From: Bacillus sp. ISL-51
GTDB taxonomy: Bacteria; Bacillota; Bacilli; Bacillales; Bacillaceae
Direction: 5' to 3'
Assembly: GCF_018613535.1 (NCBI RefSeq)
Contig: NZ_JAGGQB010000004.1
Location: forward strand, 62,001 to 126,000
DNA: 64,000 nt
Shown here: piece after piece, positions 1,965 to 10,296 of the stretch
Position numbering within the stretch: the stretch's first letter is position 1
Layout of the letters: each line of letters begins with the position of its first letter
Position numbers and translations under genes: made by a program
The notes under the pieces: model-generated
Database searches by the model: none
What the model was told of the DNA's origin: nothing
What the model saw: the letters and a program-made list of their open reading frames with translations, nothing else

Positions 1965-2079
1965 GCCGTATTTCCCGCATAAAAAAATAATACCAAAGGT
2001 GGTTAAACCCTTGGTATTATTGTGATGCGGCCGAGAGGACTTGAACCTCCACGGGTTATTCACCCACTAGGCTCTTAAC
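1965..2079. repeat. att remnant 1: duplicated tRNA-Leu 3' end plus terminator
   Basis: These 115 bases repeat 10152-10266 with only a handful of differences. The segment 2026-2079 copies the last 54 bases of the tRNA-Leu(GAG) gene, and 1983-2022 copies that tRNA's terminator hairpin. The 5' half of the tRNA is missing. Such a duplication is what a tyrosine recombinase leaves at the far end of an integrated element. Bases 2080-2130 continue as an element-specific arm shared with att copy 2. No gene is seen between 1922 and 2415. Confidence 0.9.
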
Positions 2080-2415
2080 ATTGTAAATCCATATCACTGG
2101 TTATGAAAGCTTGTTTTCATTACACTCCCTTCTTTCATTTTCTATAATTTCTATTTATTTTCGTGAATTGTGGTTGAGAAATGGTGATTAATTTCTTGTC
2201 CGTTTCGATAACTAAGCAAAATGTCACGATGCCATGGAGCCTAGAAATTAAAACAATACACATACATGCCCGAATTTTTGTTCATTTTGAAATTACCCTT
2301 TAATTCAAGCAAACTAATCCAAGAACCCCCTTCCAAGATGAGAATTGACAGTGAGTTAAGGGTTTTTAATTCCAGGAAATTTGAATGGTTGTATACTTGA
2401 TTCCATTAGTAACAC

Positions 2416-2847
2416 TCATTTTAAATGTTGATTGATTTTGTTCAACAATTCATTTAAGGTTTGCTGCTCCTCTTCAGTAAGGCCAAAAATAATTTCATCT
2501 TCCACTTTTTGAAACGATTGATTAAAGGATTCAATCAGTTCAACGGCTTTAGGCAAAACATAAATATTTTTTTGTCGCTCATTATCAGCAGGGATTTTGC
2601 GCTCAATCAATCCTTTTTTCTCAAGGCCTTGAAGCATACTTGTAATACTTGCACCGCGCAAATGGAAACGATCTGCAAGGTCCTTTTGAATTAAATCTTT
2701 ATCTTGATTCTTGTAGATATAGTCGATGATTTTTCCTTGTTGAGAGTTTAACCCCAAATCTTTTATGCTTTCGTCTGCTCTTTTTTTTAGTTTAAGCCCG
2801 ATAATTTGAAACAAGTCAAGGTAGGGTGTATCCTTTCGAGACTTCAT
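2416..2847 (-). CDS. MarR-family transcriptional regulator
   Basis: 143-residue winged-helix regulator. The DNA-binding part (about residues 25-95) shows the family pattern: a helix ending QQGKIIDYIY, a recognition helix region RGASITSMLQGLEKKGLIERK, and a wing at about 85-100. It is divergent from the amidohydrolase at 3017, and the 169-base gap holds two inverted repeats of the same TTAG/CTAA core, so it probably represses both itself and that enzyme. MarR proteins usually lose DNA binding on meeting a small phenolic or lipophilic ligand; the ligand here is unknown. An ATTAGGAGG-like ribosome site precedes the start. Confidence 0.88.
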   Translation of the reverse strand: MKSRKDTPYLDLFQIIGLKLKKRADESIKDLGLNSQQGKIIDYIYKNQDKDLIQKDLADRFHLRGASITSMLQGLEKKGLIERKIPADNERQKNIYVLPKAVELIESFNQSFQKVEDEIIFGLTEEEQQTLNELLNKINQHLK

Positions 2848-2872
2848 GGTATACCTCCTAATATAACCGATA

Positions 2873-2978
2873 AATAGTTAGATAACTAACAGTCAATAGG
2901 TGAACTATACAAAATTTACACTTGATTGTCAATGGCTGAATTTAGAATATTGACAGTTAGAAGACTAACTGTTAGAAT
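2873..2978 (+). promoter_or_regulatory. Amidohydrolase promoter with two MarR-type operators
   Basis: TTGACA-N17-TAGAAT occupies 2950-2978 and points at the amidohydrolase. An inverted repeat CAGTTAG-AAGA-CTAACTG (2954-2971) fills the spacer between the -35 and -10 boxes. A second palindrome TAGTTA-GA-TAACTA (2875-2888) lies close to the marR start. A repressor bound to these sites would block both genes. Assignment to the MarR protein is inferred from position. Confidence 0.7.
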
Positions 2979-3016
2979 CCTAATTAAATTATGATTTACC
3001 AAGGAGGAACATCAAA

Positions 3017-4327
3017 ATGGCAAACAAAAATCATAACTCTACTACGGAAAAAGTTACGGCAATTACAAATGTTCGTATTTTCGATGGGGAAAAGGTTATC
3101 GATGCAAGAAATATTGTTATCAAAGGAGAAAAAATTATTGCAGTGGGCAAAGATATTCCAGAAAATGCAACAATCTTCAATGCGGATAATGCAACTTTAC
3201 TTCCTGGTTTGATTGATGCACATGTTCACACTTCTATTGGTGGACTAAGGGATGCTTTAAAATTTGGTGTGACAACCGAACTCGAAATGAACGGCGATTT
3301 TACTAAAAGAGGGCGTGAGATCCAGTTGAAAGATTTGGTTGATGTCGCCGACGTTCGTTCTACTGGTACTGCGATCACTGCACCGGGCGGTCATCCAGAT
3401 GAACTGTTACCAGATGGAGATGAAATTCCTGAATTTGTCTTGAAAGAATTAGAAAAGCTATCGAGGGAAGACAGAGAGGCTATGCTTGCTGCATACGCTC
3501 ATGATCACGAAGAAATTCCTCAAGTGACTACTGTGAAAGAAGCCATCAAGCATGTGCATACCCAAGTTAAAAATGGAGCCGACTTCATTAAGATTATGAT
3601 TGAAGAAGGTACTGTCATGGGCGCTCCAGGACTGCCTGTTTTAAGTGACGCTATTTTAAAAGCAGCTGTTGATGAAGCTCACAAGTCGAATAAAATCGTC
3701 ATTGCCCATGTATTGACAGCTCAATCTTCCCAAGAAGCCATCAATATTGGAGTAGATGGTTTGGGCCATTTGTTTATTGACAGGCCCGAATCAACGTCCA
3801 AGTTGGTTAGTTCTATAGCTGAGTCAGGTGCTTTTGTCACACCATGCCTGGTATTGAACTCATCGATTCTTGGAAATTCGGCATCGGTATTAGCAGATGA
3901 TCCACGTGTATATTCCAAATTAAGTCCAGAATGGATTGACGTTTTGAACTCAAGCTTTAATACCTTTCCCCAAGGCAGTATGGAGAATAGCTTTCAAAAT
4001 GTGATGGATCTTCACAATGCGGGTGTAGATATTTTGGTCGGGACTGATGTCTCCCCGGTTCCTGTTCCGAATCTTGGTGGTCTTGCTCACGGTGCCAGCG
4101 TTCATCATGAAATGCAATTGCTGGTTAAGGCGGGATTTACTCCAATAGAAGCTCTTCAGTCGGCTACTTCAAAAACGGCCCGTTGCTTTTGTCTTGATGA
4201 TCGCGGTCGTATTGCCGAAGGTATGCGTGCTGACTTTGTACTCGTAAACGGCGATCCGACGACCAATATAACAGATACTTTGTCAATCAAATCTGTATGG
4301 TTCAAAGGTATAAAACAATCAATTTAA
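3017..4327 (+). CDS. Metal-dependent amidohydrolase (imidazolonepropionase-like)
   Basis: 436-residue TIM-barrel hydrolase of the amidohydrolase superfamily. Visible metal ligands and active-site motifs, in order: DAHVH at about residue 67, the lysine in DFIKIMIEEG (about 191, the usual carboxylated lysine), IAHVL (about 233), GLGHLF (about 252) and GTDVSP (about 346). An N-terminal beta-sandwich and the C-terminal RIAEGMRADFVLVNG strand are also present. There is no signal peptide, so it is cytoplasmic. The ribosome site AAGGAGG lies nine bases before ATG. The substrate cannot be read from sequence; relatives hydrolyse cyclic amides, dipeptides or organophosphate-like compounds. The divergent MarR gene suggests induction by a xenobiotic or aromatic compound. 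Confidence 0.85.
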   Translation: MANKNHNSTTEKVTAITNVRIFDGEKVIDARNIVIKGEKIIAVGKDIPENATIFNADNATLLPGLIDAHVHTSIGGLRDALKFGVTTELEMNGDFTKRGREIQLKDLVDVADVRSTGTAITAPGGHPDELLPDGDEIPEFVLKELEKLSREDREAMLAAYAHDHEEIPQVTTVKEAIKHVHTQVKNGADFIKIMIEEGTVMGAPGLPVLSDAILKAAVDEAHKSNKIVIAHVLTAQSSQEAINIGVDGLGHLFIDRPESTSKLVSSIAESGAFVTPCLVLNSSILGNSASVLADDPRVYSKLSPEWIDVLNSSFNTFPQGSMENSFQNVMDLHNAGVDILVGTDVSPVPVPNLGGLAHGASVHHEMQLLVKAGFTPIEALQSATSKTARCFCLDDRGRIAEGMRADFVLVNGDPTTNITDTLSIKSVWFKGIKQSI

Positions 4328-4461
4328 TGGTTAATTAATTATAAGTTAGGATCTCTCACTAAGATTGTGAAAAGATATACTTCAATTGAGAGCGTAAAAT
4401 ATCTTGTGTAAATGAAGAAATACAAAAAGGAAGACCTTTTCTTTTAGATTTAAGTCACCAC

Positions 4462-9431: not shown

Positions 9432-9453
9432 AATAAAATTGTTAAACAATCGG

Positions 9454-9489
9454 GCGCAATTCTGAAGTAAGAATTGTGCTCTTTCTTTA
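9454..9489 (+). terminator. Terminator of the esterase gene
   Basis: GCGCAATTCT / AGAATTGTGC stem with a six-base loop, followed by TCTTTCTTT, about 20 bases after the stop codon. Confidence 0.75.
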
Positions 9490-9545
9490 TGTTAAGTGCC
9501 ATATTGATAAGGAACGTTTTCAATGCAATTGGAGATTTATTTTAA

Positions 9546-10117
9546 AATATTGAAAAATACACAATAGAAAAACATATCATACCGTATTTTGAAAATTGTA
9601 TCGTCAAAAAAGTTACCCATAATGAAATTCAAGACTTTCAAAAATCACTAATTAATAAAGGACTTGAAAACAAAACAATTAATAACACAATGATCATTCT
9701 CAGCAAAATTTTTGATATAGGTATCGTAGAAGATGTTTTAATCAAAAATCCATGTGAAAAAGTGAAAAATTTAAGTGTTGTAAAGAAACAGATGAAATTT
9801 TGGACTCCCGATCAGTTCAAAGAATTCATCAATCAGAAGAAACTTATATGTTCCAATACAAAGACAGACCTCCTACCAAAGATATTTTCAGCAGAAAAAT
9901 AAAACAGATTTGTCAAAGAGGAAATGTTGAGCCTATTCGTTTCCATGATCTGAGACATTCCCATGTAGCCTTACTAATCCATCAAGGGGAAGATTATTTA
10001 GTAATAAAAGAACGATTAGGACATAGTTCCGTTTCTTTTACAATGAATACTTACGGACATCTTTTTCCTAATAAACAGAAGGAAACTGCTGACCGTTTGG
10101 ATGATTACTTTAAGTAA
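9546..10117 (+). pseudogene. Broken tyrosine recombinase (ICEBs1/Tn916-type integrase)
   Basis: Remains of the integrase that would have mobilised an element at this tRNA. The SAM-like core-binding domain survives in one frame (9546-9850: IEKHIIPYFE ... NKTINNTM ... NPCEKV, then FWTPDQFKEF). The catalytic C-terminus survives in another (about 9835-10117) with HDLRH (HxxR), ERLGHSS and the tyrosine in NTYGHLFP. Between them about 100 residues, including the first catalytic arginine, are deleted with a frame change, and a stop at 9543 cuts the N-terminus. About 190 of some 370 residues remain. It reads toward the tRNA and is surely inactive. Confidence 0.85.
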
Positions 10118-10151
10118 CTGGTGAGTTTTGGTGAGCAAGTCTTCTTCCATA

Positions 10152-10266
10152 GCCGTATTTTCCGCACAAAAAAATAATACCAAAGGTGGTTAAACCCTTG
10201 GTATTATTGGGATGCGGCCGAGAGGACTTGAACCTCCACGGGTTATTCACCCACTAGGCCCTCAAC
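10152..10266. repeat. att copy 3: intact tRNA-Leu 3' end and terminator
   Basis: This is the parent copy of the att repeats at 1965 and 7761. Bases 10213-10266 belong to the functional tRNA-Leu(GAG), while 10152-10212 hold its terminator and flank, shared with copy 1. Confidence 0.9.
10168..10208 (-). terminator. Terminator of the tRNA operon
   Basis: AATAATACCAA / TTGGTATTATT hairpin with T-run on the minus strand, directly after the last tRNA. Confidence 0.85.
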
Positions 10267-10296
10267 CTAGCGCGTCTGCCATTCCGCCACGACCGC
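10213..10296 (-). tRNA. trnS-leu2: tRNA-Leu (anticodon GAG)
   Basis: 84-base cloverleaf with a seven-pair acceptor stem GCGGTCG/CGGCCGC (one G-U), a long variable arm, and anticodon loop TTGAGGG. CCA is not encoded. It is the last gene of the tRNA operon. The name follows B. subtilis, where the equivalent gene is the ICEBs1 integration site. Confidence 0.95.

What the first reader, a model, noticed from the sequence alone, without database searches (positions are those of the whole stretch)
1965..10296. Tandem array of three att copies at tRNA-Leu(GAG): two stacked island remnants at the ICEBs1 attachment site
The last 54 bases of the tRNA occur at 2026-2079, 7761-7814 and 10213-10266 in the same orientation. 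Copies 1 and 2 also share a 50-base arm beyond the tRNA part (2080-2129 and 7815-7864, two mismatches), which must be the distal end of related elements. Copy 1 and copy 3 share the tRNA terminator. This is what two successive integrations into the same tRNA produce. The intervals 2.08-7.76 and 7.81-10.2 kb are therefore separate imported segments whose conjugation genes are gone.
Basis: partly seen in the sequence, partly recalled or inferred. Interest (0 to 1): 0.8.

Follow-up and report, generated by a model that had tools for sequence, protein, structure and literature searches.

The report
Stacked mobile-element remnants beside a tRNA
Next to one leucine tRNA gene, this Bacillus and many of its relatives carry a row of leftover mobile-element segments, each ended by a copy of the same integration site, and some of these segments also turn up in other species and at a second place in the chromosome.

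Summary
In detail: three direct copies of the 3' end of tRNA-Leu(GAG), two of them sharing an arm. The window holds two att-bounded, decayed segments between the tRNA and a desaturase gene that follows the tRNA directly in a relative (G027, near a contig edge). A second relative (G031) shows an empty site inside a contig.

The feature is larger than reported. The array continues left of the window. Of 39 related genomes examined, 30 have at least one extra junction and 16 have four or more. Homology between species ends at junctions four times more often than expected. The arm follows the upstream segment and the tRNA-end/terminator follows the downstream one, so the swap point is the integrase core. 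Integrase traces are concentrated in the tRNA-proximal segment (18 of 30, against 8 of 89 later ones).

DNA of these segments also sits in the yrk region or similar places, and yrkM, the known secondary site of ICEBs1, is itself such an old junction. The window's arm is a sister type of the ICEBs1 arm, not the same.

This is tandem accretion of ICE/CIME-type elements, a known kind, here forming long modular arrays. Whether segments without their own integrase still move in trans is open.

The parts
10213..10296 (-). tRNA-Leu(GAG); its 3' 54 nt (10213-10266) are copy 3, core 10254-10270
   Evidence: ARAGORN; core has all 17 of 17 positions
10173..10208 (-). terminator hairpin after the tRNA; 96% alike to that of copy 1 over the 115-nt repeat
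9551..10105 (+). broken tyrosine integrase, next to the tRNA, in two separate reading-frame pieces
   Evidence: Pfam PF00589 on the C-terminal piece; tblastn with the ICEBs1-type integrase, 69% over 94 aa for one piece and 51% over 94 aa for the other; 90% over 94 aa to G003 and G026
8583..9431 (+). segment A cargo: carbohydrate esterase (SASA family)
   Evidence: PF03629, E 9e-53; nearest relative 92% in G032, elsewhere in that genome
8088..8489 (-). segment A: truncated end of a reductase-like gene (named by eye)
   Evidence: no Pfam family; 8082-8367 is 94.8% alike to L132:6275-6560, inside an intact 244-aa ORF
7700..7916 (-). copy 2: diverged terminator, tRNA 3' part (7761-7814), spacer 7807-7813 intact, arm 7815-7916
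6829..7404 (-). segment B: TetR-family regulator
   Evidence: PF00440; 89.5% in G033 array
6022..6771 (-). segment B: short-chain dehydrogenase
   Evidence: PF00106; 83% in G033 array
4682..5695 (-). segment B: zinc-type alcohol dehydrogenase family protein
   Evidence: PF13602, PF08240, PF00107; 92% in G033 array
3017..4327 (+). segment B: amidohydrolase, not found in the other 43 genus genomes at E 1e-60
   Evidence: PF01979
2416..2847 (-). segment B: MarR-family regulator
   Evidence: PF12802
2080..2181 (-). arm of copy 1
1965..2079 (-). copy 1: tRNA 3' part (2026-2079) and terminator (1986-2021); spacer 2072-2078 has 2 of 7 bases changed
797..1825 (+). desaturase gene: neighbour of the site before the two window segments came in
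   Evidence: PF00487; directly after the tRNA in G027

Best explanation
The window shows the tRNA-proximal end of an accretion array at the ICEBs1-type attachment site in tRNA-Leu(GAG). Integrative elements related to ICEBs1 integrate by their tyrosine integrase at the 7-bp spacer of the anticodon stem-loop. Each insertion rebuilds the tRNA with the element's own copy of the tRNA 3' end and terminator, and leaves at its far end the element's arm joined to the displaced tRNA 3' end and terminator. Later elements stack on. Older ones lose integrase and conjugation genes and stay as att-bounded cargo segments (CIME-type). Shown: geometry, empty sites, decay, recurrence across the genus, breakpoints at the core. 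Inferred: that an integrase made each junction, and the order of events.
For: Repeats with a foreign arm. Integrase remnant at the tRNA end. Empty sites in G027 and G031. 119 extra junctions in 39 regions; 0 hits from 222 control tRNA queries; no profile hit in reversed sequence. Homology ends at junctions: 601 of 2948 against 143.5 expected, maximum 256. Arm tracks the upstream segment and terminator the downstream one, 0 of 2000 permutations each. Whole ICEBs1-type elements between the same junctions in G035, G039 and G011. Integrase traces in 18 of 30 first and 8 of 89 later segments.
Against: The window's arms are only 57-59% alike to the ICEBs1 arm in the profile alignment and not found by direct BLAST (best E 0.047), so the parent element is a relative, not seen whole with this arm. 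70 of 119 closed segments show no ICEBs1 gene trace. Junction decay with order is weak (Spearman -0.23, p 0.01), and rises with order in 3 of the 16 arrays with at least four junctions. Parts of both window segments are neighbours at another place in B. inaquosorum. The G027 empty site lies near a contig edge.
Confidence: 0.87

Rival explanations
1. Integron-like exchange: segments without their own integrase are excised and re-inserted in trans by an ICEBs1-type integrase, at junctions of the tRNA array and of other places such as the yrk region. (An addition to the best explanation rather than its opposite.)
For: Same segments at different positions in different species. DNA of array segments at the second place, with ends near junctions: 14 of 60 against 2.4, and 12 of 84 against 3.0, within 150 nt. 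Segments far more alike than the flank, e.g. 94.5% vs 78.8% (G026/G038), no integrase found. yrkM, an old junction, is a working ICEBs1 target in the laboratory. Exact spacer kept in 30 of 55 full and 12 of 20 arm-only junctions.
Against: 22 of 48 blocks are less alike than the flank, as old shared layers would be. Within 50 nt the excess on the yrk side is weak: 3 of 60 against 0.8. Spacer exact in only 5 of 44 tRNA-end-only junctions. No excision was tested. Copy 1 has a changed spacer.
Confidence: 0.3
2. Homologous recombination after natural transformation: the repeats act as homology for swapping segments, and no integrase has acted since the first insertions.
For: The tRNA 3' part plus terminator is about 105 nt of shared sequence at many junctions. 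Some segments are clearly lateral.
Against: The tRNA 3' part goes with the downstream segment (31 of 2000 permutations reach it) and the arm does not, so breaks gather at the core rather than along the repeat. Presence of segment DNA at the second place is hard to explain by this alone.
Confidence: 0.25
3. Local duplication of the tRNA gene made the repeats.
For: The repeats are copies of a tRNA 3' end.
Against: Foreign arm in copies 1 and 2; empty sites; no copies for the other six tRNAs; ICE genes between copies in relatives.
Confidence: 0.01

Closest known systems
CIMEs and tandem accretion of ICEs/IMEs (streptococci; review PMC5704250, passages read)
   Same: Decayed elements that lost integration and transfer genes but keep att ends, stacked at one tRNA or gene end with newer elements.
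   Different: Longer arrays (up to nine extra junctions in one genome), present across a genus, segments shared between species in different orders, and related junctions at a second chromosomal place.
ICEBs1 of Bacillus subtilis (PMC3715440, passages read)
   Same: Same tRNA, same 17-bp core, integrase relative, whole ICEBs1-type elements between the same junctions in G035, G039, G011.
   Different: The window keeps only an integrase fragment, and its arm is a sister type of the ICEBs1 arm.
Integrons (recalled, no source opened)
   Same: Rows of small cargo segments separated by repeated recombination sites, with integrase traces mostly at one end.
   Different: Sites are tRNA-derived with an ICE-type arm; no IntI or attC model was run; segments often carry their own regulators.

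Membership tests
[quoted passage not shown]
   tblastn with 23 ORFs of the G035 element finds only integrase pieces in window segment A and nothing in segment B
CIME (cis-mobilizable element) | keeps both att ends | tested here: met
   segment A lies between copies 3 and 2, both with intact spacer; segment B ends at copy 1, whose spacer has 2 of 7 bases changed
CIME (cis-mobilizable element) | can be mobilised together with an ICE in cis | not testable with these tools
   needs a mating experiment
ICEBs1 (complete ICE) | integrase, relaxase and conjugation genes present | tested here: not met
   only a broken integrase in the window segments
ICEBs1 (complete ICE) | integration in tRNA-Leu at the 17-bp core | tested here: met
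ICEBs1 (complete ICE) | ICEBs1-type right-end arm | tested here: not met
   49 and 51 of 86 aligned positions alike, background level; direct BLAST best E 0.047
Integron | IntI-type integrase and attC sites | not tested
   no IntI or attC model was run; the resemblance is in behaviour only

The most novel reading that the evidence does not exclude
In the Bacillus subtilis group, ICEBs1-type integrases serve an integron-like cassette system at more than one place: small att-bounded cargo segments without their own integrase are inserted, lost and exchanged at the core, at tRNA-Leu(GAG) and in the yrk region. The laboratory 'secondary site' yrkM is one of its old junctions.
Probability: 0.3. Interest if true: 0.8.

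Novelty: new variant of a known kind. Interest (0 to 1): 0.57.

Why it matters
The tRNA-Leu(GAG) region becomes a readable record of successive element arrivals across a genus, with integrase traces mostly at the tRNA end and stripped segments further out. It gives a reason why ICEBs1 prefers yrkM when its main site is missing: yrkM is a former attachment junction. It also shows how metabolic genes may settle in a chromosome as leftover cargo of conjugative elements. If the segments move in trans, a model laboratory bacterium has an integron-like exchange system that can be tested with existing ICEBs1 strains.

Tried and rejected
Terminator-only matches (11) were set aside before counting, because the hairpin alone could be a look-alike. 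Five of the 44 genomes were left out of the regional analysis: G001 (no match), G004, G020 and G041 (match at a contig edge), G030 (6% contamination, doubled hits on two contigs). Downstream sequence held was 10 to 75 kb per genome, so counts are lower bounds. Tandem duplication of the tRNA was rejected. Carriage by phages or plasmids: 5 phage and 8 plasmid records matched the tRNA part of the query (from base 100 on), none the arm; the query was the ICEBs1 right end of G035, not the window's arm. Outside the genus, 26 of 36 genomes of the same family matched and none had more than 2 matches; only 10 candidates per genome were scored, and one arm-bearing match (G079, 76%) was not followed up. 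The amidohydrolase of segment B has no relative at E 1e-60 in the other 43 genomes. The desaturase-CdnL stretch was first taken for a mobile segment; it looks more like an old, near-fixed layer: desaturase in 17 of 39 regions (15 of 17 lying 181-257 nt from a junction or the tRNA), CdnL in 27 of 39. An earlier count gave 29 for CdnL, a miscount corrected. An earlier wording of mine, that the window's arm is the ICEBs1 right end, rested on an iterated profile into which relatives had been drawn; direct comparison did not bear it out.
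Full report
WHAT IS THERE. The window is contig C19:62001-126000 of a 3.6-Mb genome. tRNA-Leu(GAG), the last gene of a seven-tRNA cluster, lies at 10213-10296 on the minus strand. Its last 54 nt recur at 7761-7814 (1 mismatch) and 2026-2079 (2 mismatches), in the same orientation. Copies 1 and 2 share an arm beyond the tRNA part: 3 mismatches in 50 nt, 81% over 198 nt in all. Copies 1 and 3 share the terminator; copy 2 has a more diverged one. Between copies 3 and 2 lie a broken integrase, a carbohydrate esterase and the truncated end of a reductase-like gene (segment A). 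Between copies 2 and 1 lie TetR, a short-chain dehydrogenase, a zinc-type alcohol dehydrogenase, an amidohydrolase and MarR (segment B). A desaturase follows copy 1. Families are from Pfam; the reductase is named by eye from its relative.

THE ARRAY IS LARGER THAN THE WINDOW. A fourth copy with its arm lies at C19:59505-59673, left of the window.

GENUS-WIDE SURVEY. Of 44 genomes of the genus held, own included, 43 match the query. I examined the region downstream of the tRNA in 39 of 44. With a profile seeded from the window's copies and iterated on the relatives there are 119 junctions beyond the tRNA: 55 full, 44 with the tRNA 3' part only, 20 with arm and core only. At least one is present in 30 of 39, at least two in 22, four or more in 16. 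In the same regions the 3' ends of the other six tRNAs give 0 hits from 222 queries, against 67 hits for Leu(GAG) from 39 queries. The profile gives no hit in 1.26 Mb of reversed sequence nor in the window from 12 to 64 kb, against 170 hits in the real regions, tRNAs and terminator-only hits included.

EMPTY SITES. In G027 the tRNA is followed directly by the terminator and, 199 nt on, the desaturase; the alignment with copy 1 is continuous from the core onward and parts just upstream of it. Caveat: this tRNA lies 114 nt from the contig's start. A second case lies inside a contig: what follows the tRNA in G031 follows the far junction of a 15-kb element in G022, with the same parting at the core. 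In 15 of the 17 genomes with the desaturase it stands behind 1 to 7 junctions; the window, with 2, is one state in a series. In G010 it lies 11.5 kb from the tRNA with no junction called between.

WHERE THE SWAPS HAPPEN. Blocks shared between genomes (927) end at junctions: 601 of 2948 ends within 200 nt, against 143.5 expected (maximum 256 in 500 circular shifts); 116 of 754 against 37.9 when nearby ends are merged. For junction pairs that share only the upstream segment, the arm is 81% alike (background 61%) and the terminator is at background (72% vs 74%). For pairs sharing only the downstream segment, the terminator is 81.5% and the arm at background (63% vs 61%). Permutation: 0 of 2000 for both positive tests; the reverse tests are null; the tRNA 3' part follows the downstream segment (31 of 2000). 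Single pairs vary, and some upstream-sharing pairs have unlike arms. So the unit of exchange runs on average from core to core, as a tyrosine integrase acting in the spacer would make it. PMC3715440 (passages read) gives that structure for ICEBs1 attB.

WHAT THE SEGMENTS ARE. G035 holds an intact 20.5-kb element between two junctions. Both yrkM primers and two of three ICEBs1 primers tested from PMC3715440 match G035 exactly; the third (ABO19) does not. G035 is thus B. subtilis 168 or very near. G007 also carries one, followed here only to the end of the fetched stretch. Other segments keep scraps of the ICEBs1 gene set (gene names recalled). Of 119 closed segments (median 4.4 kb) 26 have an integrase trace, 14 a conjugation-module trace, 26 a Rap trace and 70 none. 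Integrase traces are in 18 of 30 first segments and 8 of 89 later ones (Fisher p=5e-8). Decay of the junction with order is weak (Spearman -0.23). Small segments hold cargo such as a xylanase, or a regulator with a transporter (named by eye).

THE ARM. The window's arms are not the ICEBs1 arm: 49 and 51 of 86 aligned positions agree, no better than background, and direct BLAST finds nothing firm (best E 0.047). They match an arm of the yrk region of G035 (86% over 107 nt, E 4e-34, for copy 2; 79% over 81 nt for copy 1). The ICEBs1 arm matches that of a G005 array junction (80%, E 9e-24), which in turn matches the yrkM arm (88%, E 3e-36). There are thus at least two arm types at one site.

SHARED SEGMENTS. 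Whole segments recur at different positions in different species, for example G032 first = G033 third = G035 second, and G011 seventh = G036 third. Some are far more alike than the flank: 94.5% vs 78.8% for G026/G038, 86.9% vs 69.5% for G017/G036. But over 48 blocks with flank data and at least 3 of 4 ends at junctions or region ends, 25 are more alike than the flank, 1 equal and 22 less. Both old shared layers and lateral moves are therefore likely.

A SECOND PLACE. Arms with cores also lie away from the tRNA, in G035 in the yrk region (gene names recalled), often joined to another conserved left end with its own hairpin ('class B'). I looked at 12 such stretches from 11 genomes. They share DNA with each other, but that all are one locus was not shown. 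DNA of tRNA-array segments is found there in other species: 58 matches of at least 350 nt and 80% identity. Ends within 150 nt of a junction are 14 of 60 against 2.4 expected on that side and 12 of 84 against 3.0 on the tRNA side; within 50 nt, 3 of 60 against 0.8 (weak) and 6 of 84 against 1.0. For the window itself, ADH, SDR and TetR of segment B, the arm of copy 2 and the reductase end of segment A stand in one row, same order, in B. inaquosorum (L132:3111-6560), but with a class-B left end where the window has tRNA end and terminator. The pair may thus have come as a composite with the internal left end replaced later; I cannot decide this.

THE yrkM LINK. PMC3715440 reports that 11 of 27 transconjugants had ICEBs1 in yrkM when attB was missing, a site 2 bp different from attB, with reduced excision from it. 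The paper's yrkM primers lie at L128:11708 and 11981 and enclose a core with exactly 2 mismatches at L128:11866. That core is joined to an arm of the ICEBs1 type (profile E 1e-17; 88% to the G005 arm), and the DNA beside it matches tRNA-array segments of G005, G009 and G026 up to the core (93-94% over about 1 kb). The best-used secondary site of ICEBs1 is thus most likely an old att junction. The passages I read do not say so, and a search for yrkM with ICEBs1 listed that paper only. It also means that at least one old junction is a working target.

HOW IT WORKS. Most likely, repeated integration of ICEBs1-related elements at the anticodon-loop core, each restoring the tRNA and its terminator, followed by loss of integrase and conjugation genes. 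Inferred, not shown: that an integrase made each junction, that older segments can still be moved by an integrase in trans, and in what order segments A and B came.

PRIOR KNOWLEDGE. Tandem accretion and CIMEs are known, mainly from streptococci (PMC5704250, passages read). Searches for a description of such arrays at this Bacillus tRNA (listings only) showed none, but the library holds open-licence papers only. The pair in the window alone is an ordinary member of that kind; the long, modular arrays with a second place are the new part.

Noticed in passing
L128:11849-11981 (G035 C1:2707848-2707980): The known ICEBs1 secondary site yrkM is a core joined to an ICEBs1-type arm, i.e. most likely an old attachment junction.
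   Followed up: yes
L055:6226-6460, L132:6017-6196, L129, L130, L131, L134: A second junction class: arm and core joined to a conserved non-tRNA left end with its own hairpin; it could not restore the tRNA if inserted there. Origin unknown.
   Followed up: partly
G016:C41:418899-418989; G009:C9:193931; G037:C18:9134; G010:C21:30514: Further junction-like matches away from the tRNA; possibly more places of the same kind.
   Followed up: no
window 8583-9431 and G032:C5:47374-48620: The nearest relative of the window's esterase (92%) lies beside an integrase fragment elsewhere in G032.
   Followed up: no
L081 (G019), 1.4-2.3 kb after the tRNA: A relative (85%) of the segment B alcohol dehydrogenase lies near the tRNA with no second junction called in the region; fits loss of a junction, or is against the reading.
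   Followed up: no
L075 and L137/L138 (G018, G029): Genes of segment B occur at the second place in G018 and G029 too, split by other DNA.
   Followed up: partly
G079:C51:522-685: The only arm-bearing match outside the genus (76%) in the part of the list shown for 36 other family members.
   Followed up: no
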